Shown in pieces: positions 1,711 through 13,671 of a stretch of DNA of 37,885 bases. Numbering within the stretch: the stretch's first letter is position 1; every line of letters begins with the position of its first letter. The notes beneath the pieces are model-generated. The model was not told the origin of the DNA, did no database searches, and saw nothing but the letters and a program-made list of their open reading frames with translations. A program made the position numbers and the translations under genes. Origin of the DNA: Bacteroidota bacterium (GTDB lineage: Bacteria > Bacteroidota > Rhodothermia > Rhodothermales > Bin80); assembly GCA_028873925.1 (NCBI GenBank), contig JAPPNA010000150.1, positions 1 through 37,885 of the forward strand, given 5' to 3'.

Positions 1711-3147
1711 TCATGACCCCGGCGGCGAGGTGAACAGGCGTTCCTGACGAATAGGAAACGGGAGCTGATCGTCTATCCGCGGCAGGGAGCCCTCCTGCCA
1801 CCGCAGTTCAATCTGACCGATTAGCTCGCGCATGGAAGGCTTTCCCTGGGCTACCAGAAAGGCGCTCAGCAGCTGGGCTCCGGTGGAATCAAACAGAATC
1901 ATCGCCCCGTTCTGCCGCGCGTAGATGGCTTCAACCGGATTGCCCTCGCGGTCCAGCCCTCCGTAGAAGCCCTGCGTACCGGTGGCTCCCCCAACAGTGG
2001 CGTAAAGACCAATCCATCCACGTAATATCAGTCGCTCATCCGAATCCTCCGGGAACATACGCAGCGCCGTGGCCAGGGCATCCACGGTTACGATGGTTTC
2101 CTGGGAGCTTTGCTGGCGCTGCCGGGCCGCCAGACGGTTCAAGCCGTTATCCAACAGAAATCCGCCGCCGTGCGGACCGGCCGAATAGATTCCGGGAACC
2201 CTGTCATAGACGGCCGCATCCAGATAGGAGTAGAGCACATTGTATAGCCCGTTACGCATGGAATCCGTCAGATCCACGGGGTCAACCGCCAGCAGCGAGT
2301 GAAAATACTGATAGGCGCTGCCATTGCGGGCGAGCGGAGTCTGAATTGTGTGCGAACCCGTGGTTGAGGCGGGATGGGCGTTAACCAAGGCGTTCTGTGC
2401 TGCAATCATGGATTGCCAAGAGTTCAATCCGGCTTGCGGATCAGCGATCATGGGCGTGCCTCCGATAAAATACGCCAGCACAAAGGCAACGCTGGCGTAG
2501 TAACCGCCAAAAAGCAGGTTGATTCCCATCGGGTCAACACCGAACAATCCCGCGTGCGCAAACGTCGGCATAAAGCCGGATGATTGGGCCAAAGCCTGAT
2601 TGTATCCAAGCTTCTGCTTCTCCAGGAAGGTCAGTGCCTTATCCCCGGTCGACGTTCCACTGAACAACTGGGCAGCCATGGCCACGCGCGCGGATAGGAC
2701 CGCGTTATCGGTAAACGAATACTCCAGCGTGGCCGGAGCAAGCTGCCCGGAATCCACCGACATGCGAGGCAGCATGTTGCGGTAATTCCTCGGCGGGCGG
2801 TCCGAAATCTGAGCCTCCAGCAGGTGCGTCAGCATGGTATCCACCACATCCCGGTTGCCCGCATGCGCCAACAGGTGCTGGAGCCGGAAAGCTATCGCAA
2901 TGGGGTCGGTTTCACGTACAAGGGTGTTGCCCCGCAGCTCACGGTAGGGCAGCCGGGTAACCGGGTCAAGGCCGGTGCCGTAATAATTGGCGTTCAATGC
3001 AATGAATTCCTGCTCGTCAATAACCGGCCCGTCAAACAGGGGCGACTCCTCCTCCAATCCAAGGTCTGAGCATGCAGCTGCGGCAGCTACGAGCGAAAGC
3101 TGAAGGAATTGGCGGCGGGAAAAGGACTTATCCGGTTCGGCAGGCAT
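1711..3147 (-). CDS. Tat-exported lipoprotein, putative (alpha/alpha) toroid-type protein
   Basis: The 478-residue protein starts with a twin-arginine motif (SRRQFLQ, about residues 10-16), a hydrophobic stretch and a Cys at about 26 (AAAACSD), so it is likely exported folded and lipid-anchored. The remainder is largely helical with small-residue turns and no membrane segments. Segments such as MSVDSGQLAPATLEYSFTDN, with the later GPHGGGFLLDNG and GGLDREGNPVEAIYARQNGAM, recall (alpha/alpha)-barrel glucoamylase-like proteins, where conserved acidic residues line the active-site cleft. I cannot assign a family or substrate, and catalysis is not shown. It is transcribed away from the dehydrogenase cluster, so the roughly 100-bp interval 3148-3254 is a divergent promoter region. 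Confidence 0.75.
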   Translation of the reverse strand: MPAEPDKSFSRRQFLQLSLVAAAAACSDLGLEEESPLFDGPVIDEQEFIALNANYYGTGLDPVTRLPYRELRGNTLVRETDPIAIAFRLQHLLAHAGNRDVVDTMLTHLLEAQISDRPPRNYRNMLPRMSVDSGQLAPATLEYSFTDNAVLSARVAMAAQLFSGTSTGDKALTFLEKQKLGYNQALAQSSGFMPTFAHAGLFGVDPMGINLLFGGYYASVAFVLAYFIGGTPMIADPQAGLNSWQSMIAAQNALVNAHPASTTGSHTIQTPLARNGSAYQYFHSLLAVDPVDLTDSMRNGLYNVLYSYLDAAVYDRVPGIYSAGPHGGGFLLDNGLNRLAARQRQQSSQETIVTVDALATALRMFPEDSDERLILRGWIGLYATVGGATGTQGFYGGLDREGNPVEAIYARQNGAMILFDSTGAQLLSAFLVAQGKPSMRELIGQIELRWQEGSLPRIDDQLPFPIRQERLFTSPPGS

Positions 3148-3254
3148 GGCGCAGTTGTGCTTACAGGTTCGTTACCGCAGCCTTGCACCGGCGGTTCCCC
3201 ACAGTGCAAGGGTGCACCAATTCCGTTAGCTTGGATGACCGACTGTATCCGACC

Positions 3255-4259
3255 ATGTGGCAGACTGCCTTGGTAAACTATGCGCCCGCACCGTACAGTG
3301 TGGAGCTCAGACAGGTGCCTGTTTCTGATCCCGGACCTGGAGAAGTGCTGGTGGATGTCCGAGCAGTGGCTGTCTGCGGGTCGGATTTACACCAGTGGCA
3401 TGGATCGCACGGCTGGGAGGTCAATTATCCGGTCGTGCTGGGTCATGAGTTTGCAGGCGTAGTTGCGCAGGTGGGCGACGCGTCGTGCCCATTTAAGGTG
3501 GGATCACGGGTTGTAAGCGAAACTGCAGCGGTGATTGATCCGATCTCAGTTTGGTCCCGAAGCGGGCTCTATAATCTTGACCCGGCCAGAAAAGGATTCG
3601 GCTACGGGGTGGACGGAGCTATGGCACGATACGTTCGTGTTCCTGATCGCTGCCTGCATGGACTGGCCGACGAATTGACGATGGATCAGGCGGCACTGAC
3701 TGAGCCGTGCTGCGTGGCCTACAACGCAACGGTAAACAACGCTAACATCAGACCGGGAGACAGCGTTGTCGTCCTGGGTCCCGGCCCTATCGGCATTCTG
3801 TGTGGTGTTATCGCTCAATTGCAGGGTGCCGATGTGGCCATAGTCGGACTGGACCGGGACAGGTTGCGATTGAAAATTGCAGAGCAGTATGGCATGATGG
3901 CACTGGTCGGCGATGCTGAAGCCTGGGCCGATGCGGATGTTGTGATAGACGCGACTGGCAGTTCAAGGGCTTTGGAGGTGGCACTGAATCTGGTGCGGCC
4001 GGCAGGCTGGATTACCAAAGTGGGCTGGGGCACCGAGCCGTGCGGGTTTTCGCTGGACCCATTGGTGCAGAAGAACGTCACACTGCGCGGCAGTTTCAGT
4101 CACAACTATCCAGTGTGGGAAAAGGTACTTCGTCTTCTCACCGCCGGCAGACTTGACGTAAAGCCCCTCATGGGCGGCTGCTGGCCTCTGGCGCAGTGGA
4201 GGGACGCGTTTGAGGCCATGGACAGTGGTCGAATCATAAAGGCAGTAATCAATCCCTGA
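3255..4259 (+). CDS. Zinc-type alcohol dehydrogenase (MDR family) lacking structural-zinc cysteines
   Basis: This is a 334-residue medium-chain dehydrogenase of the threonine/sorbitol-dehydrogenase type, expected to oxidise a polyol or hydroxy acid with NAD(P) in the cytoplasm. Catalytic-zinc residues are present: C41 (VCGSD), H64 and E65 (GHE) and E150 (TEP). The Rossmann motif GPGPIG is at 175-180. The structural-zinc lobe normally has CX2CX2CX7C, but here the equivalent positions 95, 98, 101 and 109 are D, S, S and D with spacing intact. The ATG at 3255 (MWQTALV) is preferred because it gives a standard N-terminus; the frame is open further upstream but that part is not family-like. The stop lies 6 nt before the SDR gene, so the two are probably co-transcribed. 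Confidence 0.92.
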   Translation: MWQTALVNYAPAPYSVELRQVPVSDPGPGEVLVDVRAVAVCGSDLHQWHGSHGWEVNYPVVLGHEFAGVVAQVGDASCPFKVGSRVVSETAAVIDPISVWSRSGLYNLDPARKGFGYGVDGAMARYVRVPDRCLHGLADELTMDQAALTEPCCVAYNATVNNANIRPGDSVVVLGPGPIGILCGVIAQLQGADVAIVGLDRDRLRLKIAEQYGMMALVGDAEAWADADVVIDATGSSRALEVALNLVRPAGWITKVGWGTEPCGFSLDPLVQKNVTLRGSFSHNYPVWEKVLRLLTAGRLDVKPLMGGCWPLAQWRDAFEAMDSGRIIKAVINP

Positions 4260-4265
4260 ATCCTG

Positions 4266-5048
4266 ATGCGGCTGGCAGAAAAGACTATCATCGTAACCGG
4301 AAGTGCGGCGGGCATAGGCCGCACCATGGCCTCAGTTTTTGTTCGCGAAGGGGCGAACGTAATCGTTACGGACCGCAATGAGAAAGAGGCCAAAATGGTG
4401 GCCGATGAACTCGGTGCCGGCGCAGCCCTCCATGTGGATGAACTGTCCGACCCCGCCGCTTCCCGGCGAATTGTGGAGGCTGCCCTGAGCAGCTTTGGCC
4501 GGATCGATGGCCTGGTCAACAACGCGGCGTTTATTCCGCGGTCAAACATCCATACGACAGATGTGGCGCTGTTTGACAAGGTTATGCACATCAATGTGCG
4601 GGCCCCCATGCTGTTGATTCAGGCTGCCCTGCCGCATCTGACCGCCACCAAGGGCAGCGTGCTCAATATCGGTTCCATTAATGCGTATTGCGGCGAGCCG
4701 CCCCTGCTGGGTTACAGTGTTTCCAAGGGAGCACTCATGACCCTGTCGCGCAATCTGGGTGATGCACTCTTTGCCGAATACGGCGTGCGCGTCAATCAGA
4801 TCAACCCGGGCTGGATCCTGACTAACAATGAGTACAAACTGAAACTGGCCGACGGCCTGCCGCCGGATTGGCCAAGTCGGCTGCCTGTTGGGGTAGCTCC
4901 ATCCGGCGGACTTATTGGGCCGGAGACCATTGCTCAGGCCGCCATCTACTGGCTCAGCGACGAGTCCCTCCCCATCAGCGGCACCGTGGTGGATCTGGAG
5001 CAGTACCCCATGATTGGCCGCAATCCTCCTAAAGAGGTTTCTACCTGA
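4266..5048 (+). CDS. SDR family oxidoreductase
   Basis: This is a classical short-chain dehydrogenase/reductase of 260 residues, the usual length. The NAD(P)-binding motif TGSAAGIG is at 11-18, D36 at the end of the second strand favours NAD(H), NNAA is at 85-88, and the catalytic tetrad is N110, S137, Y150 and K154. NPGW follows in the expected place, and the C-terminal ISGTVVDLEQ corresponds to the usual SGxxxxVDGG element but with the final glycines replaced. It is cytoplasmic. The 6-nt gap after the alcohol dehydrogenase suggests the two work in sequence on one substrate, for example oxidising a sugar or polyol at two positions. The substrate cannot be read from sequence. Confidence 0.93.
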   Translation: MRLAEKTIIVTGSAAGIGRTMASVFVREGANVIVTDRNEKEAKMVADELGAGAALHVDELSDPAASRRIVEAALSSFGRIDGLVNNAAFIPRSNIHTTDVALFDKVMHINVRAPMLLIQAALPHLTATKGSVLNIGSINAYCGEPPLLGYSVSKGALMTLSRNLGDALFAEYGVRVNQINPGWILTNNEYKLKLADGLPPDWPSRLPVGVAPSGGLIGPETIAQAAIYWLSDESLPISGTVVDLEQYPMIGRNPPKEVST

Positions 5049-5051
5049 GGA

Positions 5052-5069
5052 TCGGGAATTCGATCCCGA
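5052..5069. other. Small inverted repeat after the SDR gene
   Basis: TCGGGA (5052-5057) and TCCCGA (5064-5069) form a 6-bp stem with a 6-nt loop just past the SDR stop. It lacks a T-tract. It may attenuate read-through, but the evidence is slight. Confidence 0.25.
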
Positions 5070-5080
5070 CCGCCTATACC

Positions 5081-5203
5081 CTACATCCATGCCAAGCCGT
5101 TTTGCATGCGCTCGTGGCCGTAGTGATGGCTTATCAGCAGTGTTTCTGAGCCATCGGGATAATAGGCCAGCGCATTAGTGGAATGCATTCCGGCGAGCCT
5201 CAC
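5081..5203 (-). pseudogene. Orphan C-terminal coding fragment of an unidentified gene
   Basis: Read on the minus strand, the gap between the SDR and isomerase genes encodes AGMHSTNALAYYPDGSETL and then LISHHYGHERMQNGLAWM before a TAG stop. This is far more protein-like than an antisense frame usually is, and it lies outside the neighbouring coding regions. Upstream on the same strand it runs straight into the isomerase gene, so a full gene cannot exist here. I read it as the preserved 3' end of a lost gene. The family is not recognised. Confidence 0.35.
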
Positions 5204-6076
5204 GATGGCCGACAACCCCGCCTGGCCGTGTTTCCCAAGGCGTATATGGATCCGCTCTGTATAAGCGGGGCCATGGGCCTTGAGGAATGGATTCGGCTGG
5301 CCGCCACATTGGGCGTGTCGGGGCTGGAATTCTATGCGGGGTTTTTGGATCTGGCCAAGGAATCCGACTGGAGCCGCTATCGGAAAACAGCTGCGCAAGA
5401 GGGGCTGGAGATCCCCATGCTGTGCTGTTCTCCAGATTTTGTCTGGCCCGACCGGGCGAAGCGCAGGCGCGCTGTAGACTGCCAGAAGCACTGGATGCAA
5501 ATGGCCCGCGGGGTGGGTGCCCGCTATTGCCGGGTACTGTCCGGCCAGGCGCGCCCCGAGGTCATGCGCGAGGACGGCTTAGCGATGGTTACCGATGCCA
5601 TTGAGGAGTGTCTGGAATTTGCGGAAACCCTGGACCTGGTTCTCATTCTTGAGAATCACTATAAGGACAACTACTGGGAGCATCCCGAGTTCGCGCAGTC
5701 GCTGGAAGTCTTCTGTGAACTGCTGCTGCGCATTTCCAGTCCCCGGCTGGCCGTCAACTACGATCCTTCCAATGCACTGCTGGCCGGGGACGATCCGATG
5801 ACCTGGCTGGATGCCGTGATAGACCGCGTGGCCACCATGCATGCCAGCGATCGGTACGTGTCGGATGAACGGACACCGGATGCCGCTGTACGTCTGTGTC
5901 ACGGAGAGATTGGCTGCGGCCTTGTGGATTATCCGCGAGTCCTGAACAAGCTGAACGACAAAGGTTTTGATGGCTGGATCAGTATTGAGGATGGCATTGA
6001 AGGCATCGGCCAGCTACGCCGCAGTGTGGCGTTCCTGAAAAACCTGATCAGTAAAGTCTGGACGCAAAATGGATAG
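5183..6076 (+). CDS. Sugar phosphate isomerase/epimerase (xylose-isomerase-like TIM barrel)
   Basis: A protein of about 280 residues of the xylose isomerase-like/AP endonuclease 2 TIM-barrel family, which isomerises or epimerises sugars and keto acids using a divalent metal. Conserved-looking elements are LGVSGLEFYAGF near the first strands, LILENHYKD with the metal-ligand glutamate, NYDPSNAL, MHASDRY (His/Asp) and WISIEDG near the C-terminus (Glu). The first residues from the ATG at 5183 (MHSGEPHDGRQP) do not look native. An ATG at 5205 in another frame reads MADNP and would continue into RLAVFPKAYMD if a CCCC run near 5214-5217 had one more C. A one-base loss is therefore likely. It overlaps the nitrilase gene by 8 nt, so the two are coupled. 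Confidence 0.85.
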   Translation: MHSGEPHDGRQPRLAVFPKAYMDPLCISGAMGLEEWIRLAATLGVSGLEFYAGFLDLAKESDWSRYRKTAAQEGLEIPMLCCSPDFVWPDRAKRRRAVDCQKHWMQMARGVGARYCRVLSGQARPEVMREDGLAMVTDAIEECLEFAETLDLVLILENHYKDNYWEHPEFAQSLEVFCELLLRISSPRLAVNYDPSNALLAGDDPMTWLDAVIDRVATMHASDRYVSDERTPDAAVRLCHGEIGCGLVDYPRVLNKLNDKGFDGWISIEDGIEGIGQLRRSVAFLKNLISKVWTQNG

Positions 6077-6896
6077 GTTACCACTAAAGGTCGCTCTGGT
6101 CAGGGAGGTATTTACCGGCGGCGATGCGTCCGGGACGCTCGAGCTGCGTTTGGCCCGGGCCAAAGAGCAGGGCGCGGAGCTTGCGGTGTTGCCGGAACTG
6201 CCCTACAACGTCTGGTCTCCTGCCACAACCCGGCTGCGCAGCTCCGACGCGGAATCCCCGGGAGGAAGGCGTGAAGAGATGCAGAACCTGGCCGCCGGGA
6301 AAACGGGGATGGCGCTACTGGGAGGAGTGATTCAGCAGGTGGATAACCGGCGGTTCAATCGGGCCATTCTGTCGGACAGCTCGGGCAGAACGGTGGCCCG
6401 GTATGATAAAGTTCACCTTCCGGATGAGGAGGGATTCCGCGAGCCCTGTCACTATGAACCCGGTCGCAATCCTCCGAGCGTGATTGAATTAATGGGTGCT
6501 CGGTTCGGAATCCAGATCTGTTCGGATGCCAATCGACTGGCGGGCAGCCAGTATCTGGCAGCTCAGGGTGTCCAGGTCATCCTGGCACCCCCGTGCGAGC
6601 AGCCCGGACAGTTGGCCCAGATGGTGCCTTGTATACCGAGCCATGGCCTTGACCTGTGCGCCTGGGTGATTTCCGTGGGGCGGCCGAAGGCCGAGTTCGG
6701 TGTACCAATCGGCGGCCCGGCGCTGGTTGTGGATCCTATGGGGCGGGCGGTTGCGGAGTCCAAGGACCCGCTTATCATCGTTACTCTGGATGTGGCCCTA
6801 GCGGATGCCGCCCGCCAGGAGTATCCCGGCTACCTGGCCTGGCCAGCGGATTTGTATGCGGATGGTTGGGCGGCTTGGGCCACGGGCCACCGGTAG
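6069..6896 (+). CDS. Carbon-nitrogen hydrolase (nitrilase superfamily)
   Basis: This 275-residue cytoplasmic enzyme belongs to the nitrilase/amidase superfamily, which hydrolyses C-N bonds in amides, carbamoyl compounds or nitriles. The complete catalytic triad is visible: E43 in VLPELPYN, K114 in YDKVHLP and C151 in IQICSDAN. The GREPCHYEPG-like stretch before the Cys, and the later SVGRP and VDPMGR segments, fit the alpha-beta-beta-alpha sandwich. Length is normal. It is the last gene of the dehydrogenase/SDR/isomerase cluster and overlaps the isomerase gene by 8 nt. A good hairpin follows its stop. The cluster probably degrades an amide-bearing or carbamoylated sugar acid; the substrate is unknown. 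Confidence 0.93.
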   Translation: MDRLPLKVALVREVFTGGDASGTLELRLARAKEQGAELAVLPELPYNVWSPATTRLRSSDAESPGGRREEMQNLAAGKTGMALLGGVIQQVDNRRFNRAILSDSSGRTVARYDKVHLPDEEGFREPCHYEPGRNPPSVIELMGARFGIQICSDANRLAGSQYLAAQGVQVILAPPCEQPGQLAQMVPCIPSHGLDLCAWVISVGRPKAEFGVPIGGPALVVDPMGRAVAESKDPLIIVTLDVALADAARQEYPGYLAWPADLYADGWAAWATGHR

Positions 6897-6908
6897 GGGT
6901 TCGCATAC

Positions 6909-6941
6909 ACGGGCGGCGCTCCTACTGGGGATACCGCCCGT
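6909..6941 (+). terminator. Terminator-like hairpin after the catabolic cluster
   Basis: ACGGGCGG (6909-6916) pairs perfectly with CCGCCCGT (6934-6941) around a 17-nt loop, 13 nt after the nitrilase stop, and is followed by a short TTT. It is a plausible end of the 3255-6896 transcript. Confidence 0.5.
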
Positions 6942-7444
6942 TTGGCGCACCGGTGCGTGCAGTCGGAGAGAAGCGGTTTGATCAGCAATCAGGATTGAAG
7001 TGGTGGCGGCACATGCGCTTGACAGCCGGGATGAAAACCCGCGAACCCCGAGTCCGTGATTGGAATGTGAAAGCGCGCCCTTCCACGCCGTACGGGAAGT
7101 GATGGCAAGAAAGTGCTGGGGTGTCACGAAATCTGGATAATTCCGGCTGAGGAGGCCCTTGAAACCATGGCCGCCATGTACTGTTAATGGCGTTCTTGCA
7201 AGACGCTCCGACGGGAACAACTGTCGCTGACTCCCGCTGTTAGGTGTCGCAGAACAGATTTGGACTGATGCAGATTGTGTTAAACGGTGCATTGATCTCC
7301 GGTACGTCGGTCAATGCTGGAACCGGTACGAAATGTGCCCGGATATCGGATGCCGCCGGTCAGCTGGTCTTTACCGCTGAAGCCCCGATCTTGCCCGTTC
7401 CCCTCCGCTCTCGCGTTCCACTCCGCCAAATTCAGTAGGAATTC
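6942..7444. other. Intergenic region upstream of the first propeller cassette
   Basis: About 500 bases without a convincing gene. Short frames exist on both strands but look random. It presumably carries the promoter for the cassette. I could not identify a Bacteroidota-type TAnnTTTG element with confidence. An AGGA lies just before the ATG at 7445. Confidence 0.45.
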
Positions 7445-7738
7445 ATGACAACTCTTCGCACCCTAAAGCTCGTCAATATTCTCCTAAGTGTGGCCCTAAT
7501 CACCACAGCGCTGGCTATCGGCCTGCGTGAGATATACCCAGTGGGTGCAGACCAGAAGACACCCGACCAAGAATACCGAGTAAGTTTTGGCCTAGGCTGT
7601 CTACTCCCGTCACTGGAATTCGTTCCAGCACCCTGCTATAGTGTGGATTGCGAACGGAGAGGGAAGGGCTGCTCCCATTGGGCGGGGGCCTGTTTTACTT
7701 TGGATGAGGATGACGAAGATGGGTATTTCGACGTTTGA
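7445..7738 (+). CDS. Small Cys-rich exported or membrane-anchored protein, copy 1
   Basis: The 97-residue protein has an N-terminal hydrophobic segment (about 8-26) behind a basic start, then a PVGADQ box at 32-37, cysteines at 52, 64, 69, 76 and 83, and a strongly acidic tail (LDEDDEDGYFD) resembling a calcium-binding loop. It aligns without gaps to the 97-residue protein at 9650-9943, about 44% identical by hand count, with all five cysteines conserved. In Bacteroidota, small NVEALA proteins with an N-terminal hydrophobic segment and C-terminal cysteines are found next to 6-bladed propeller genes. The architecture and context match, but the NVEALA motif itself is absent. It is probably exported with a disulfide-bonded core. 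Function is unknown. The propeller gene starts 46 nt downstream. Confidence 0.8.
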   Translation: MTTLRTLKLVNILLSVALITTALAIGLREIYPVGADQKTPDQEYRVSFGLGCLLPSLEFVPAPCYSVDCERRGKGCSHWAGACFTLDEDDEDGYFDV

Positions 7739-7784
7739 GCATGATCTCCCGATTACCTAGGTCCTGCCTGCTCAGCTGCGATTC

Positions 7785-8819
7785 ATGATAGTGCGTTTGG
7801 CGAATTCTCGGGCTTTGGTTACGCTCCTACTGATAACGGGTGCCTTATGGGGTCCGCATGCGGGTGCTCAGCACCCCACGCCTGCTGAATTGAAATACTT
7901 CACGCCGGTTCGGTCAGTCATATTTGACGTGCCGGATACGCTGCTTATAGCGACCATTGACCATTTGGATGTGGACGCTTCAGGCAGATTACTGGTAACC
8001 GACAAATTGGGCCAGCAAGTGCTGCTGTTTGATTCAACGGGAGCTTTGCTCGCATCGCTGGATCCACGAGTTTGTCATCCCGGATTCACGTTTAGGCCGG
8101 TGAAAGCCATGTTCGGCGGAAGTGAGTTTATTTTGCTCTTTAATGCTGGCCCCTGGGGATATCGCTTCACTTCGGATGGGGCCTGTCTGGGTGGCGTGCA
8201 TTCTGACTTCGGCCTGTCCAAATTTGTAGATATCGACCCGAAAGGAGGTCTTATTGGAGTTGTGGATGGACCTGAATGGGAGGTCCGGCAAATGGATGGC
8301 TCGGGAAAGCCGCTTAACTCGTTCCCGGTAGCTGAGCCTAAGTTCCCCAATGCTAGTTATCGATTTTCCGGCGGCGGGCTCGTTGCAGACGGGTTTCATG
8401 TCTACTTCGCTTGGGCCCCGGAACCAACTGTCATGAAGTATACGCTGGATGGCGAGTTTGTGCGCAGAATCCGGAAGAGCTCGCGGTACTTCCGTTCGCA
8501 ACATGCCGACATGCCTTTTGAAGTCTCCCCAGAGCAAGTCGCTGCCCTTAGAAATTGGACCGGCACCTTTACGCTGGCGCTATATGAGCTAAGCGAACAC
8601 TTAATCATGGTCCAGTACCTTGATAATCGAAGTGGCACCGGATACCAGGTATTCAGCAAGGACGGGGAGCTGGTTGCTGAAGAGCTCGGGATCGGGGGCT
8701 GGTTCTTTATACACGGAGGAAACGGACTCGCTTACGGCCTCTTCCAGCCGGACCTTGACGACCAAAGAGAATTGCCCAACCCCTTTATCACGGTTTACAA
8801 GTTTTTGCCCCCACAATGA
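7785..8819 (+). CDS. Exported 6-bladed beta-propeller protein, copy 1
   Basis: The 344-residue protein has a signal peptide (about 1-28, ending AGAQ) and a repeated beta-rich body typical of the 6-bladed propeller family (PF17170 type/NHL-like) of Bacteroidota. Repeating blades are visible as IDHLDVDASGRLLVTD, VLLFDSTGALLASLD, FVDIDPKGGLIGVVDG, VRQMDGSGKPLNSFPV and VMKYTLDGEFVRRI. Such proteins are periplasmic or surface-associated binding scaffolds, and no catalytic residues are apparent. It is closely related to the propeller at 9996-11018 along its whole length. Its stop overlaps the next gene's ATG by 4 nt, indicating translational coupling. Confidence 0.87.
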   Translation: MIVRLANSRALVTLLLITGALWGPHAGAQHPTPAELKYFTPVRSVIFDVPDTLLIATIDHLDVDASGRLLVTDKLGQQVLLFDSTGALLASLDPRVCHPGFTFRPVKAMFGGSEFILLFNAGPWGYRFTSDGACLGGVHSDFGLSKFVDIDPKGGLIGVVDGPEWEVRQMDGSGKPLNSFPVAEPKFPNASYRFSGGGLVADGFHVYFAWAPEPTVMKYTLDGEFVRRIRKSSRYFRSQHADMPFEVSPEQVAALRNWTGTFTLALYELSEHLIMVQYLDNRSGTGYQVFSKDGELVAEELGIGGWFFIHGGNGLAYGLFQPDLDDQRELPNPFITVYKFLPPQ

Positions 8820-9442
8820 CGAACCATCTGTCCTCTCCCTTAAAAGCTGAAGCAATAAAGGTGCTGGTGTTGACCACGCTCCTGATTCTGGGTATCGGCT
8901 ATCTCGCATTAAGTGGCAGCGACGAACTCGCCGCTTCAGCCGAGGAATTTCACATTGATGTTGATATCAGTTCCGTAGATTCACTTAGAATTGCCCTCGT
9001 GGGAAAAGCAATTGCGCCTCTTCACGCCCATAATACCTCACCCGACCCCCAAGTAGATGACCTTAACTTAACTGCACCGAGCCTGCTCATCCCGATTCCT
9101 GGTAATTCCTGCATCCAGCGCCAAGTTACGGCACTGAGACGCATTCTTGCGTTGCATGCTATCATTGGCGAAGAACTACCTGTCCGGGTAGTGCTAATGT
9201 CTGAGTTTGATGAAAACGCCACGAGAGTGAAGGCTCTCCTCCTTCGGAAAGCCATTCGCCCCTCGTTTGAGTTATGGTACACCAGCGAGCTGACCAAACT
9301 CACTACGGCCGTGACTTTCCGGCAGTTGGAGCCAGTCCTTTTGGTCAGCAAGTCCAAGGTAGCTCAGGTGTATCATGCCGTTGAGCATCTAGCGATCAAG
9401 CGGGCTGTCGCAGACTTGAAGGCGGCTCTGTCTACGAATTGA
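8816..9442 (+). CDS. Membrane-anchored thioredoxin-like protein (putative)
   Basis: The 208-residue protein has one N-terminal membrane segment (about 15-32) and an extracytoplasmic domain. The central stretch SLLIPIPGNSCIQRQVTALR, followed by VRVVLMSEFDENATRV, resembles the strand-Cys-helix-strand start of a thioredoxin/peroxiredoxin fold, in which the Cys sits at the helix N-terminus. C99 is the only cysteine, so a CXXC dithiol is absent and activity would be of one-Cys type or lost. It is coupled by a 4-nt overlap to the propeller gene, which suggests it acts on or with the propeller and the Cys-rich small protein. The fold assignment is an inference from pattern, not a firm family hit. 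Confidence 0.6.
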   Translation: MTNHLSSPLKAEAIKVLVLTTLLILGIGYLALSGSDELAASAEEFHIDVDISSVDSLRIALVGKAIAPLHAHNTSPDPQVDDLNLTAPSLLIPIPGNSCIQRQVTALRRILALHAIIGEELPVRVVLMSEFDENATRVKALLLRKAIRPSFELWYTSELTKLTTAVTFRQLEPVLLVSKSKVAQVYHAVEHLAIKRAVADLKAALSTN

Positions 9443-9649
9443 ATCCATCGGCCAACCAGATTGACCTTGACTGATGCTAGAATGTGCCGGTAGGAAAGTG
9501 CCTAGACCGCCTTGGGTGGAGAATTTCGGTGCAGAACGACCCTTGCTGAGAGTGAGTGCCTTCGGCCAGAAAGTCACGTATGAGGCAAGACCGGTTCATC
9601 TGTCCTGCTCCGCTCACCTGCTCCATTTCACCAGCTGTATTTTAGAATT

Positions 9650-9943
9650 ATGAATACCCTTCGCATTCTTCAGATCATCAAAATCCTGCTGGCTGTTACC
9701 GTTGTGGTCATATTCGCGGCAATCGGAATGCGCGAGACTACTCCTGTGGGTGCAGATCAACAAACTGAGGAACAGGACCGCAAGATGGAGTGGCGTAGAG
9801 GCTGCATTTTTTCAGACAAGTCCCGCGCCAGACTACCCTGCTACCGCGCGTTTTGCAAGAAGGAAGGAACCGAATGTTCTGCATGGGGCGGTGCCTGCTT
9901 CAGTGCGGATGAGAATGACGAAGATGGCTTTTGCGATTACTGA
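9650..9943 (+). CDS. Small Cys-rich exported or membrane-anchored protein, copy 2
   Basis: A 97-residue paralogue of the protein at 7445-7738, colinear with no gaps. It keeps the AIG.RE..PVGADQ block at 24-37, cysteines 52, 64, 69, 76 and 83, the WGGACF segment and the acidic tail (DENDEDGFCD), and adds a sixth cysteine at 95. The N-terminal membrane segment keeps its hydrophobicity but diverges in sequence, as expected for an anchor or signal. The region from 64 to the end is the most constrained, so this is likely the functional part. The propeller paralogue begins 52 nt downstream. Function is unknown. Confidence 0.8.
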   Translation: MNTLRILQIIKILLAVTVVVIFAAIGMRETTPVGADQQTEEQDRKMEWRRGCIFSDKSRARLPCYRAFCKKEGTECSAWGGACFSADENDEDGFCDY

Positions 9944-9995
9944 TCCTGGTTGCTTAATTGGCTGAAAAGAACAAGGGAACACAGGACCCGTAGAC

Positions 9996-11018
9996 ATGCG
10001 TCAGGTGCACCGAAGTCTCCGATTGATCTTTGTGCTGCTGCCAGCAGCTATCCCAACCATTCAGGCGCAGGATCTATCGCCCGCTGAGCTGAAGTACTTC
10101 ACGCCAGTGCGTACGATCAAGTTCGACGAACCGGATTCGCTGCTGATTGCAGCCATAGAGCATCTTGATGTGGATGCCGCAGGTAGACTGCTGGTAACTG
10201 ACCCGCTCGGCATGCAGGTGTTCTTGTTTGATTCAACGGGGGCCTTGCTGGCCTCCCTTGATTCGCGTGAATGCCACCCCGGTTTTGAGTTTGATCCCAC
10301 GGGTGCCATTTTTGGGGCCAACGAATTTATTCTTGTTTTGAACGCCGGATCTCGCGGGTATCGCTTCAATTGGAACGGCGGCTGCTTGGGCAGCATGGAC
10401 CCCGGGTTTCGCTCAACGTCATTTATGGATATCGATCCGACCGGAACATTCTTCGGGGTTGAAGAAGGTCCCTTCTGGGAAGTGCGGCGAATGAACTCCA
10501 CCGGCAAGATACTGGACACGTTTCCCGTCCCGGAACCCAAGTTCCCCAATGCCAGCATCCGGTGGGCTGATGGCGGGCTGGTAGCCGATGGATCGCATGT
10601 CTACTATGCGTGGGCACCGGAGCCGGCGGTCATGAAATTCACAGTGGATGGCAGGTTTATACGCAAAATCCAGCAGCACTCGCGGTACTTCCAGTCACCG
10701 CGTGCTGACTTGCCCGCCGAACTCTCGCCGGAACTGTTCGCAGCAATCAGGAAATGGCGGGGAACGAGTACGCGGACTGTTTTTGAACTCACGGACCGGT
10801 TCATCATGCTCCAGTACATTGATCACAGCAATGGTACCGGCTACCAGGTCTTTGACAAGGGTGGCGCATTGATCGTAGAAGAATTGGGGACAGACAGCAG
10901 GTTCTTCATCCATGCAGGCTACGGGCTGGCTTACGCCCTCACCCAGCCGGACTTGGACGAGGAGGGAGAGTTACCCAACCCCTATCTCACAGTTTACAGG
11001 TTTGAAGCTCCGCAGTGA
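9996..11018 (+). CDS. Exported 6-bladed beta-propeller protein, copy 2
   Basis: A 340-residue paralogue of the propeller at 7785-8819, with a signal peptide (about 1-24, ending IQAQ). Long identical stretches include PAELKYFTPVR, DSTGALLASLD, EPKFPNAS and PDLD at matching positions, while loops such as FGANEFILVLN versus FGGSEFILLFN vary. This is the pattern of an old tandem duplication under selection for the fold. It is likely periplasmic or surface exposed, with no enzymatic motif visible. The next frame (11015) overlaps its stop by 4 nt, as in copy 1, but that frame is not homologous to the thioredoxin-like gene. Confidence 0.87.
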   Translation: MRQVHRSLRLIFVLLPAAIPTIQAQDLSPAELKYFTPVRTIKFDEPDSLLIAAIEHLDVDAAGRLLVTDPLGMQVFLFDSTGALLASLDSRECHPGFEFDPTGAIFGANEFILVLNAGSRGYRFNWNGGCLGSMDPGFRSTSFMDIDPTGTFFGVEEGPFWEVRRMNSTGKILDTFPVPEPKFPNASIRWADGGLVADGSHVYYAWAPEPAVMKFTVDGRFIRKIQQHSRYFQSPRADLPAELSPELFAAIRKWRGTSTRTVFELTDRFIMLQYIDHSNGTGYQVFDKGGALIVEELGTDSRFFIHAGYGLAYALTQPDLDEEGELPNPYLTVYRFEAPQ

Positions 11019-11245
11019 ACTCAATTATATCCTCCAGTCCAGTATCCGCACGTATTGCTGAGGCTCCCATTATTCTGGCCTCCTCGCGGGACGAGAAGGT
11101 GGAACGCACATTTGCCTACCCGGAAGGTTGCCGCCTCTGTAAATCTGCAGAGACAACAATGTTCCTGTTCACGGTGTTTTGGGCCGATGACTCAAAAAAT
11201 TACTTTATCTATTCCACTACACTTTTGTGGGCCTTGCCTCTTTGA
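11015..11245 (+). CDS. Hypothetical 76-residue protein or remnant
   Basis: It starts with a GTG overlapping the propeller stop by 4 nt, exactly where copy 1 of the cassette has its thioredoxin-like gene. The translation contains GCRLC (a CXXC) around residues 38-42 and an aromatic, hydrophobic C-terminus. I see no convincing similarity to the 208-residue protein. It may be a decayed or replaced third cassette gene, or chance. Confidence that it is expressed is low. Confidence 0.3.
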   Translation: MNSIISSSPVSARIAEAPIILASSRDEKVERTFAYPEGCRLCKSAETTMFLFTVFWADDSKNYFIYSTTLLWALPL

Positions 11246-11573
11246 GTTTTTGGGCAAATCCATTTGGATTGATCCCCATTACTGAGGCAATATGGCGTTG
11301 GAATGGGGTCGGGTCCGTGTCCTGGATGACTCGGATGCACCGGTCCTGGCTCCGCGGCAGCTCGGTCGTGATCCACTCCCAGTAATCAAGCACGAATCGC
11401 ATGGCGGTTCAGCTCTGATGGACACCGCGCATCTTGAGTCGCGAGCGGATCAGGTGCACCGCGTGGTAGGCAAGCACCAAGATAGACAGATGTCCGGCAA
11501 TGCGGTGGTCTTTGCGGTGATACAACGGTCGCAGACTCAACTCGAATTGTATCCGACCGCACCGGCCGGTTAG
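11217..11573 (-). pseudogene. C-terminal remnant of an IS4/IS1634-type transposase
   Basis: On the minus strand one frame reads FELSLRPLYHRKDHRIAGHL, then SILVLAYHAVHLIRSRLKMR and GVHQS, stop, TAMRFVLDYWEWITTELPRS, and continues to a stop at about 11217. This matches the C-terminus of DDE transposases of the IS1634/IS4 group, where 'LRP..H....R..GH..I..LAY' is followed by 'SW..IR..L....ITT.LP'. The in-frame TGA at 11409-11411 stands where the family has Trp, so a nonsense change or read-through is indicated. The N-terminal two thirds with the DDE residues is missing, so the copy is dead. It abuts the 3' end of the phospholipase D-type gene. No terminal repeats were identified. Confidence 0.7.
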
Positions 11574-13060
11574 TCACGCGTTTTGGATGGAGCCCTGCAT
11601 ACATACCAGGGCCGATAATCCGGGAGGCACCGTTTGGGCCAGGCGACCCGGTACTCGTCAGAAAAGTCCCTGTAATGGGTCGTTGACAGCCAACGGTGTG
11701 GAGGCAATTCCGGCAATGGGGGTGGAACGGCGCTGCAGCCCGGGTCGTCAGCGTCAACCAGACCGTCAAAATCGTTATCTGCGCCATCGCGGCAGGCATG
11801 CCCGGACTGCGCAGATTCCGGGTCAGGACGCGCATTCCTACGCTGCCAATGCGCGGGAATACTATCCCAGATCCGGTCATAATAGTCGTCAAACTGAGCC
11901 GCAAGGCGCGCAGACCGAATAAGGAGGGAGTTTTCATCGTTGGTCCATTCACCGGCCGATGTCCAATTCATCGACCCGCCAATCAGCACCTCCCCGTCAA
12001 TGGAGGCGCTCTTCATGTGCATTTTTCCGCCCCAATTCTCAATTTTTACGAGGATTCCCGCTTCCCGCAGGATTTCGTGCTTGGTGTAGCCATTCTTTGC
12101 TGCCGTTGCATCTACAATCACGCGAACCTTTACACCGCGCTGATGTGCAGCGATCAAATCCGCGGCCAGCTGCTTGCTGGTCAGAAAGAATACACCCACA
12201 TTGATCCTGTGTCGGGCACGTGCGATCAGCGTTGAAACCCCTCTGTAAACAGTCCTGTCCTGGGGAGAAAACATAACCACCAGTTCCGAATCTCCCAGGA
12301 CAAATTCAGCCGGAGCCTCAGGGGTCTTGTTACAGGTGCTGTGTTCCCGGTTCCAGACTTGTTCAAATTCGTTCAAGTACGCACGCGCGACCTTTGCCGA
12401 GTGAATGATCAGCACCGCGTTAGCATTGTATCCGCCGGTGCCTGAATCGGAAATATTTGCTGATCCGGTCCACACATGTTCCTCATCGATCACAAAAAAC
12501 TTGTGGTGCATAATCTGATTCACCTGCCCGAATGGCTCGCGTGCCGCGTGACTGGCCGCAAGGAAGCGGTCGCCAATCCGGTAAGCCGAGCATTGCAGCG
12601 GACCGGTAAAACCACGGGGTTGCTGGCACTTCAGGTCGGTCGGCTCAATGGACTCGCGGCAGCGCAGCTCCCGCTCCTCATCGTCGCGGATATTGCCGAT
12701 GCGGTGGACCCATGATTCGGTTGACGTGTAGTAATTCTCACCCTCCGCGTCACGATCCACATAGCCGCGAATCCGCACACCACGATTCCGGGCGCGCACT
12801 ACGGAATTCATGATGGCCGACTGATTGCGCGCTCCGTAAATGGCAAAGTTAATCGATGACGCGGCATCATCTATCAACGCAACCAGACTCGTGCAAAGAT
12901 CGCTTTCGCAGCGGTCCGCAGGCCGGTCAAATTCCAGCGGATCCTGAAGGATCAGCTCAACAGTCTGGGCCTGCGCAGACCTGCATGGGACTGAATATGC
13001 TGCAAGCACTATCACCGCGCTCAAGGAGAGGCAATACCATGATCCGCGGCGGTCTGGCAT
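11570..13060 (-). CDS. Secreted phospholipase D-like protein with calcium-loop tail
   Basis: The 496-residue protein carries two HKD motifs, the signature of the phospholipase D superfamily (phosphodiesterases cleaving phospholipids or nucleic acids through a His intermediate): H185-K187-D192 (MHHKFFVID) and H348-K350-D355 (MHMKSASID), each followed by the expected GSxN segment (TGSANIS; GGSMNWT). The ATG at 13060 is preferred because it puts a signal peptide (CLSLSAVIVLAAYSVP...AQAQ) at the N-terminus, so the protein is exported. A Cys-flanked, Asp-rich loop (C..DG.DND.DG..D..DPGC, about 423-442) near the C-terminus looks like a calcium-binding module of surface proteins. The C-terminus ends beside a transposase remnant and may have been altered by that insertion. 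Whether it acts on DNA or lipid is unknown. Confidence 0.9.
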   Translation of the reverse strand: MPDRRGSWYCLSLSAVIVLAAYSVPCRSAQAQTVELILQDPLEFDRPADRCESDLCTSLVALIDDAASSINFAIYGARNQSAIMNSVVRARNRGVRIRGYVDRDAEGENYYTSTESWVHRIGNIRDDEERELRCRESIEPTDLKCQQPRGFTGPLQCSAYRIGDRFLAASHAAREPFGQVNQIMHHKFFVIDEEHVWTGSANISDSGTGGYNANAVLIIHSAKVARAYLNEFEQVWNREHSTCNKTPEAPAEFVLGDSELVVMFSPQDRTVYRGVSTLIARARHRINVGVFFLTSKQLAADLIAAHQRGVKVRVIVDATAAKNGYTKHEILREAGILVKIENWGGKMHMKSASIDGEVLIGGSMNWTSAGEWTNDENSLLIRSARLAAQFDDYYDRIWDSIPAHWQRRNARPDPESAQSGHACRDGADNDFDGLVDADDPGCSAVPPPLPELPPHRWLSTTHYRDFSDEYRVAWPKRCLPDYRPWYVCRAPSKTRD

Positions 13061-13671
13061 CAACAAGCCGCCCCGACAAATTGTCAGGCGACTGCCGGAT
13101 TTCCTCACACGAAATCCTGATGGACGCATGGCTCCGCTGTAGAATTGTGAATCCGATCAAGGTAGGTCCTGGCGTATGGATATACAAGCCCGGATTGCGG
13201 CCAGGCGCACCAGCATGAGGTTGACAAACCCGTGAGCCTCCTGACTCAATGCATATGCGGCCATCCGAATGATGCGCACCACAAAAAATGTCTGCGATTC
13301 CGCCTTTAAGTGCGACACCCGATGCGGGCAGGGTGCAGGTGGTCAGCCAAACTTCCACGGCGGATGCCGCGGACGGATGCCATGCGGTGCATTCTACCGA
13401 AATCCGGCATCGGGGTCTAATGCCCGCGCGGCATCAGTCAGCTGATGGGGCTGAAGTCGCACCATGCCCCGGCCTGTGCTCCGCGTTTGGCCGCCCTCAC
13501 CGCTGGCAGGATCAATGCACGTTCCCGTCCAGCCGTGTTCAGCACCCAGGCCTAAAGAGGTAGGACCGGTACGGTCCAGAGCCGTTCGGGGCTAAGGTGC
13601 CGATGGATCTTCACGCAGTTAAGGCACAGCTGTAATGCCTTATCTTTAAGGACTGAGAACCGATCGCCATC
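13061..13671. other. Divergent intergenic region
   Basis: About 600 bases between the divergently transcribed phospholipase D-like gene and the M20 hydrolase gene. It must hold both promoters. A minus-strand stretch around 13150-13260 reads AYALSQEAHGFVNLMLVRLA before a stop and may be a coding relic, but no family is recognised. No tRNA or strong hairpin was seen. Confidence 0.4.

What the first reader, a model, noticed from the sequence alone, without database searches (positions are those of the whole stretch)
7445..11018. Tandem-duplicated cassette: Cys-rich small protein plus exported 6-bladed propeller
Two copies of the same module lie head to tail: a 97-aa protein with a hydrophobic N-terminus, a PVGADQ box, five invariant cysteines (52, 64, 69, 76, 83) and an acidic tail, each followed within about 50 nt by an exported propeller. 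The small proteins align gap-free with about 44% identity by hand count. The layout parallels Bacteroidota NVEALA/6-bladed propeller pairs, but the NVEALA motif is absent. A secreted disulfide-rich peptide with a dedicated propeller partner would be a plausible unreported signalling, adhesion or toxin-type system. Seen: architecture and conservation. Inferred: pairing and function.
Basis: partly seen in the sequence, partly recalled or inferred. Interest (0 to 1): 0.75.

Follow-up and report, generated by a model that had tools for sequence, protein, structure and literature searches.

The report
Exported cysteine mini-protein–propeller–thioredoxin gene module
Two neighbouring copies of a small exported cysteine-rich protein, each with an exported propeller-shaped partner, belong to a conserved but undescribed bacterial gene module that also carries a thioredoxin-like helper, which suggests a disulfide-bonded two-part complex at the cell surface with its own assembly enzyme.

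Summary
Two 97-aa Cys-rich proteins (45% identical, no gaps) each precede an exported propeller (60% identical) by 46 and 52 nt. So the unit is small protein - propeller - thioredoxin; copy 2 lacks the thioredoxin.

The unit is not confined to this contig. A third copy lies on contig C61, and it recurs in other Rhodothermales MAGs and in distant families of the phylum. Searches seeded separately with the small protein, propeller or thioredoxin recover the same gene order. The 'PVGADQ box' is best read as a signal-peptidase I site. dN/dS of the small genes is 0.10-0.27.

In the distant family a MauE membrane protein joins the cluster, and its thioredoxins keep CxxC; the window's version has no MauE and only one Cys. 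The parts list mirrors methylamine dehydrogenase assembly, but the TTQ tryptophans are not conserved. NVEALA membership is not met; the layout parallel is real.

Best model: dedicated disulfide maturation of a mini-protein that pairs with its propeller. The final function is unresolved.

The parts
7445..7738 (+). small exported Cys-rich protein, copy 1 (97 aa; signal peptide, VGA cleavage site after residue 35; 5 Cys, sixth lost)
   Evidence: homologues
7785..8819 (+). exported NHL-type (probably 6-bladed) beta-propeller, copy 1, with the two invariant Cys of the family (C97, C134)
   Evidence: profile match to NHL propellers of TRIM2/Brat, E 2e-11
   Evidence: AlphaFold2 pLDDT 83; Foldseek 41 hits at E<=0.001, the listed ones thioredoxin/peroxiredoxin; VIA Z 12.4-13.5; alignments; active sites
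9650..9943 (+). small exported Cys-rich protein, copy 2 (97 aa; six Cys)
   Evidence: AlphaFold2 pLDDT 84: helix 3-27, then strands 44-53, 59-72, 79-85; no PDB fold match
9996..11018 (+). exported NHL-type beta-propeller, copy 2 (no thioredoxin gene behind it)
   Evidence: no thioredoxin remnant found downstream

Best explanation
This is a conserved envelope gene module of Rhodothermales and other members of the same phylum. It encodes (a) a mini-protein exported by a Sec-type signal peptide, cut at the xxA site, and folded into a small disulfide-bonded beta sheet; (b) an exported NHL-type propeller; (c) a membrane-anchored thioredoxin-fold protein facing the periplasm, with (d) a MauE membrane protein in many of the versions whose thioredoxin keeps CxxC. 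Most likely the thioredoxin, recharged by MauE where present, makes or proof-reads the disulfides of the mini-protein (and perhaps the two invariant Cys of the propeller), and the mature mini-protein then sits on its own propeller as a two-part binding complex in the periplasm or at the surface. In the window's lineage MauE is gone and the thioredoxin has one Cys; the general VKOR system of the cell would supply oxidising power and the single-Cys protein would act as an isomerase or holdase. Shown: gene order, homology, purifying selection, a predicted thioredoxin fold, MauE neighbours in relatives. Inferred: secretion, disulfides, the physical complex, the direction of the redox step. Not known: the ligand and purpose of the complex.
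For: The three-gene order small-propeller-thioredoxin is present in copy 1, in own contig C61 and in relatives G001, G002, G004 and G013 of the same family, in G037 of another family of the order, and in G085, G360 and G474 of a distant family; G008 has it too on C18, with the small gene truncated. Small ORFs with a hydrophobic N-terminus and at least 4 Cys lie upstream of 16 of 37 family propellers against 2 of 90 background genes, and those two are themselves propellers, p = 1.6e-8; leaving out loci found through the small protein, 6 of 24, p = 0.001. A thioredoxin-seeded search found new modules in G378, G409 (two in tandem), G085, G011 and own contigs C66, C78 and C138: 8 of 9 with enough flank carry the small Cys gene before the propeller. 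MauE (PF07291) lies in the clusters of G085 (two), G360 and G409 (E 1e-20 to 5e-23), and in G474, G125 and G378 by a profile built here. CxxC is kept in 8 of 8 thioredoxins with MauE in the cluster and 3 of 17 without. The own genome has no MauE but has VKOR. Thioredoxin fold. dN/dS.
Against: The MauE/CxxC correlation is confounded with ancestry: the MauE clusters are all from one family (f26). Many propellers of the family have no recognisable small gene upstream (21 of 37 by the automatic criterion), so the propeller can exist without it or the small gene decays fast. Copy 2 and the second G002 copy have no thioredoxin behind them. In G002 the two small genes are identical while the propellers differ, so pairing is not strictly one-to-one. 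Physical contact was not modelled (no complex prediction available). The small-protein model rests on 13 sequences.
Confidence: 0.5

Rival explanations
1. Secreted peptide effector or signal: the mini-protein is cleaved, disulfide-bonded and released as a bacteriocin-like or signalling peptide, and the propeller is its carrier, receptor or immunity partner. Duplication with a conserved leader and variable Cys-rich tail is diversification of the product.
For: In G125 four small genes share a near-identical leader but have quite different Cys-rich tails, each before a propeller. G409 has two units in tandem. Types with 6 and with 8-10 Cys coexist in the own genome. MauE, in one case with MauD, with precursors of at least 8 Cys was reported as candidate RiPP clusters in Streptomyces (PMC7794033).
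Against: No dedicated exporter, immunity-like membrane protein or peptidase is seen in the units read. The window copies are under purifying, not diversifying, selection. Conserved aromatic and Gly positions between the Cys (CY..xC...G.xCS.W.GACF) look like a structural subunit.
Confidence: 0.25
2. Envelope redox or metal sensor: the mini-protein's cysteines bind metal or sense oxidants, the single-Cys thioredoxin-fold protein acts like a 1-Cys peroxiredoxin, and the propeller transmits or scaffolds.
For: Top Foldseek hit of the thioredoxin-like model is a 1-Cys peroxiredoxin, with peroxiredoxins again high; single Cys in the window's lineage; the acidic tail next to the last Cys could bind Ca2+ (by eye).
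Against: Sequence around the Cys (GNSCIQRQ) lacks the peroxiredoxin PxxxT/SxxC pattern (own knowledge); homologues with CxxC and MauE point to thiol-disulfide exchange; the acidic tail is missing in most homologues.
Confidence: 0.12
3. Enzyme of the methylamine-dehydrogenase kind: propeller as large subunit and mini-protein as catalytic small subunit, matured by MauD/MauE-like proteins.
For: Same parts list as the mau operon (own knowledge of that operon): exported propeller, small Cys-rich subunit, thioredoxin-like protein, MauE; MauE is speculated to help form disulfides of the small subunit (PMC7794033).
Against: No Pfam match of the small proteins to a known enzyme subunit and none to PDB sequences; no pair of conserved Trp; no MauG noticed in the loci read; the propeller matches NHL repeats.
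Confidence: 0.08

Closest known systems
Bacteroidota NVEALA / 6-bladed propeller (PF14055 / PF17170) gene pairs
   Same: Small exported Cys-containing protein followed by an exported propeller, often repeated; the distant relatives G125, G378 and G409 have an O-antigen-ligase-type gene, small gene, propeller order like the annotation order of B. thetaiotaomicron BT0662-BT0664 (PMC10434189)
   Different: No PF14055 match in the window proteins or own genome; NVEALA motif absent; a thioredoxin gene is part of the window's unit
Methylamine dehydrogenase operon (MauA small subunit, MauB propeller, MauD, MauE)
   Same: Same four kinds of part; MauE homologues sit in the distant relatives' clusters
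   Different: Small protein shows no sequence match, no conserved Trp pair, no MauG noticed, propeller of NHL type; MauE missing from the window's genome
DUF6520 (PF20130) small proteins next to MauE or MauE fusions
   Same: MauE homologue plus a long exported domain plus a small Cys protein in one cluster; one of our small-protein family (G381) matches DUF6520 weakly, E 0.013
   Different: Match far below the curated cut-off; fewer Cys; no match for the window proteins; that the long exported domain is a propeller is by eye only
Candidate MauE/MauD RiPP clusters of Streptomyces (decRiPPter, PMC7794033)
   Same: MauE, in one case with MauD, beside a predicted precursor with at least 8 Cys
   Different: Different phylum; no propeller is mentioned in the passage read; not compared by sequence here

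Membership tests
NVEALA (PF14055) | profile match to PF14055 | tested here: not met
   no hit for either window protein or own genome; none for the homologues scanned
NVEALA (PF14055) | small exported Cys protein directly before a propeller | tested here: met
6-bladed propeller PF17170 (DUF5128) | match above the gathering score | tested here: inconclusive
   window propellers 10.2 and 16.1 bits against 22.9; a related-cluster propeller of G409 scores 63 bits
NHL-repeat propeller | profile match to solved NHL propellers | tested here: met
   TRIM2/TRIM3/Brat NHL domains, E 2e-11 to 1e-6
Thioredoxin superfamily | thioredoxin fold with Cys at the N-terminus of the first long helix | tested here: met
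   C99 before helix 100-117 in the predicted model; Foldseek and VIA matches
Thioredoxin superfamily (dithiol oxidoreductase) | CxxC active site | tested here: not met
   window CIQR; CxxC only in homologues
Methylamine dehydrogenase | MauE in the operon | tested here: not met
   none in own genome; present in distant relatives
Methylamine dehydrogenase | two conserved Trp of the TTQ cofactor in the small subunit | tested here: not met
   no invariant Trp in the small-protein alignment
Methylamine dehydrogenase | MauG | not tested
   no family search run; none noticed among the ORFs read
DUF6520 (PF20130) | match above the curated cut-off | tested here: not met
   best 16.3 bits against 25.4, on a homologue only
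RiPP precursor | post-translational modification of a core peptide | not testable with these tools
   needs mass spectrometry

The most novel reading that the evidence does not exclude
A phylum-wide, undescribed class of envelope systems in which a diversifying family of disulfide-bonded mini-proteins is matured by a dedicated thioredoxin/MauE pair and displayed on, or read by, cognate propellers, with several differently specific units per cell.
Probability: 0.3. Interest if true: 0.8.

Novelty: new variant of a known kind. Interest (0 to 1): 0.6.

Why it matters
Small Cys-rich proteins beside propellers are annotated in Bacteroidota as unknown function. Tying them to a thioredoxin-fold partner and, in distant relatives, to MauE turns a curiosity into a testable idea: a dedicated disulfide-maturation line for an exported mini-protein/propeller complex. 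Multiple differing units in one genome (six with a visible small gene here: two on C55, one each on C61, C66, C78 and C138) suggest specificity worth mapping, and the own-genome copies provide natural replicates.

Tried and rejected
Direct back-translation scan of genome contigs with one small protein found nothing; searches of whole genomes were needed. Pfam and NCBIfam give nothing credible for the small proteins or the window's thioredoxin-like protein. PDB sequence search with the small and thioredoxin profiles found nothing. Foldseek and VIA found no match for the small-protein model, which does not show the fold is new. A thioredoxin remnant behind copy 2 was sought and not found. Promoter and terminator scans of 6890-11600 gave no more than shuffles. 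Plasmid records hold no propeller homologue. Sub-cutoff PF14055 hits elsewhere in the phylum: the best, L102, has no propeller nearby. Papers: no text for NVEALA or DUF6520 in the library. Possible iron regulation of B. thetaiotaomicron BT0662-BT0664 was dropped: the reported P values are 0.13-0.44. Weak small-gene candidates in G076, G272 and G422 had no propeller beside them and were dropped.
Full report
What is there. On the + strand lie small gene 7445-7738, propeller 7785-8819, a third gene 8816-9442, small gene 9650-9943 and propeller 9996-11018. The small proteins are 45% identical without gaps, the propellers 60%.

Own genome. The window is contig C55 of a 3.93-Mb genome in 185 contigs. 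A third full unit, small-propeller-thioredoxin, is on C61 (L012 622-2613). C66, C78 and C138 carry units of a second type, with 8-10 Cys in the small protein, before a more distant propeller and thioredoxin. Close relatives are MAGs titled Rhodothermales or Bacteroidetes.

Spread. The small protein alone finds homologues in G001, G002, G004, G008 and G037; its profile adds G013, G381 and, outside the order, G085. In the distant units (G085, G360, G474) the order small-propeller-thioredoxin is the same. Searching with the thioredoxin gave G378, G409 (two units in tandem) and a second G085 unit, again in the same order. Upstream small ORFs with a hydrophobic N-terminus and at least 4 Cys: 16 of 37 family propellers against 2 of 90 other genes, and those two are propellers of the G125 array; p = 1.6e-8, and 0.001 for loci not found through the small protein. 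The background genes come from the same loci and related sequences are not independent, so the test is approximate.

The small protein. Invariant or nearly so: C52, Y65, C69, G73, C76, C83, F84. Copy 1 has lost C95. The model (13 sequences, pLDDT 84) is a helix 3-27 and three strands 44-53, 59-72, 79-85; no PDB match. dN/dS between own-genome copies is 0.10-0.27; dS is saturated, so read this as purifying selection, not as a rate.

The propeller. The profile of 17 homologues matches NHL propellers of TRIM2, TRIM3 and Brat. Two Cys (C93 and C130 in copy 2) are invariant over the phylum. Signal peptide by eye. Blade count was not modelled.

The third gene. AlphaFold2 model (pLDDT 83): an N-terminal helix 9-32, then a thioredoxin fold with C99 at the start of helix 100-117. 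The Foldseek hits listed are thioredoxin-like, most of them peroxiredoxins and ResA/TlpA-type proteins; VIA Z 12.4-13.5. Window and same-family versions have one Cys (CIQR and similar; CSGN/CSGD in the second type); the distant family has CNPC, CNKC, CNLC, CAKC or CSQC.

MauE. In the distant family a MauE homologue is in the cluster: Pfam E 5e-23, 1e-20, 2.5e-21, 1.2e-20, others by a three-sequence profile. None in the own genome, which has a VKOR homologue. CxxC is kept in 8 of 8 thioredoxins with MauE nearby and 3 of 17 without, p = 1.5e-4, but the MauE clusters are all in one family, so ancestry alone could give this. Three of these clusters also carry an O-antigen-ligase-type TPR protein, in the order annotated for B. 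thetaiotaomicron BT0662-BT0664 (PMC10434189); that BT0663 is a small Cys protein is a guess.

How it probably works. From the parts, I infer an exported mini-protein whose disulfides are made or checked by the adjoining thioredoxin-fold protein, recharged by MauE where present, and which pairs with its propeller. MauE has been speculated to help form disulfides of the small subunit of methylamine dehydrogenase, and MauE/MauD genes beside Cys-rich precursors were noted in Streptomyces (PMC7794033). The purpose of the complex is unknown. Rivals: released peptide effector or signal; redox or metal sensor; dehydrogenase.

Membership. Not NVEALA by profile, though the layout is parallel. Not methylamine dehydrogenase: no conserved Trp pair, no MauE in the genome; MauG was not searched for. 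DUF6520 is a lead only (best 16.3 bits on a homologue against a cut-off of 25.4), but its genes also sit beside MauE.

Limits. No complex could be predicted; the small-protein model is shallow; more than half of the family's propellers have no small partner visible by the automatic criterion; in G002 two units share an identical small gene while their propellers differ at residues about 118-260. No paper describing the module was found in the library searched, which lacks most subscription journals.

Noticed in passing
window 11334-11455: About 120-nt dispersed repeat, five copies in the genome (71-100% identity), one of them upstream of the C61 unit.
   Followed up: partly
window 11570-13129 (-): Exported-looking phospholipase D-family protein (PLDc_2, E 2e-45) with a Cys-containing CRDGADNDFDGLVDADDPGC tail.
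   Followed up: no
L181 2295-3261 (own contig C78): Thirteen repeats of about 37 nt at 75-79 nt spacing, a CRISPR-type array, next to a unit whose propeller is frameshifted.
   Followed up: partly
L125 (G125:C3) 2800-8775: Four small genes with a near-identical leader and different Cys-rich tails, each before a propeller.
   Followed up: partly
L014 (G002) 6498-9859: Tandem units with identical small genes but propellers differing mainly at residues about 118-260, segment dN/dS about 0.5.
   Followed up: partly
L176 228-2054, L177 7032-8858, L125 873-2777: O-antigen-ligase (Wzy_C) plus TPR protein inside three of the MauE-containing clusters.
   Followed up: no
L095 (G008:C18), L075 (G009:C37): Truncated or decayed small genes before intact propellers, a hint of repeated loss.
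   Followed up: no
window 7700-7735 and 9905-9940: Acidic tail (DEDDEDGYFD / DENDEDGFCD) resembles a Ca2+-binding loop; seen in the closest copies only.
   Followed up: no
L128-L136 (DUF6520 loci): DUF6520 small genes sit directly beside MauE homologues, several of them fused to a long C-terminal exported domain; possibly a sister system.
   Followed up: partly
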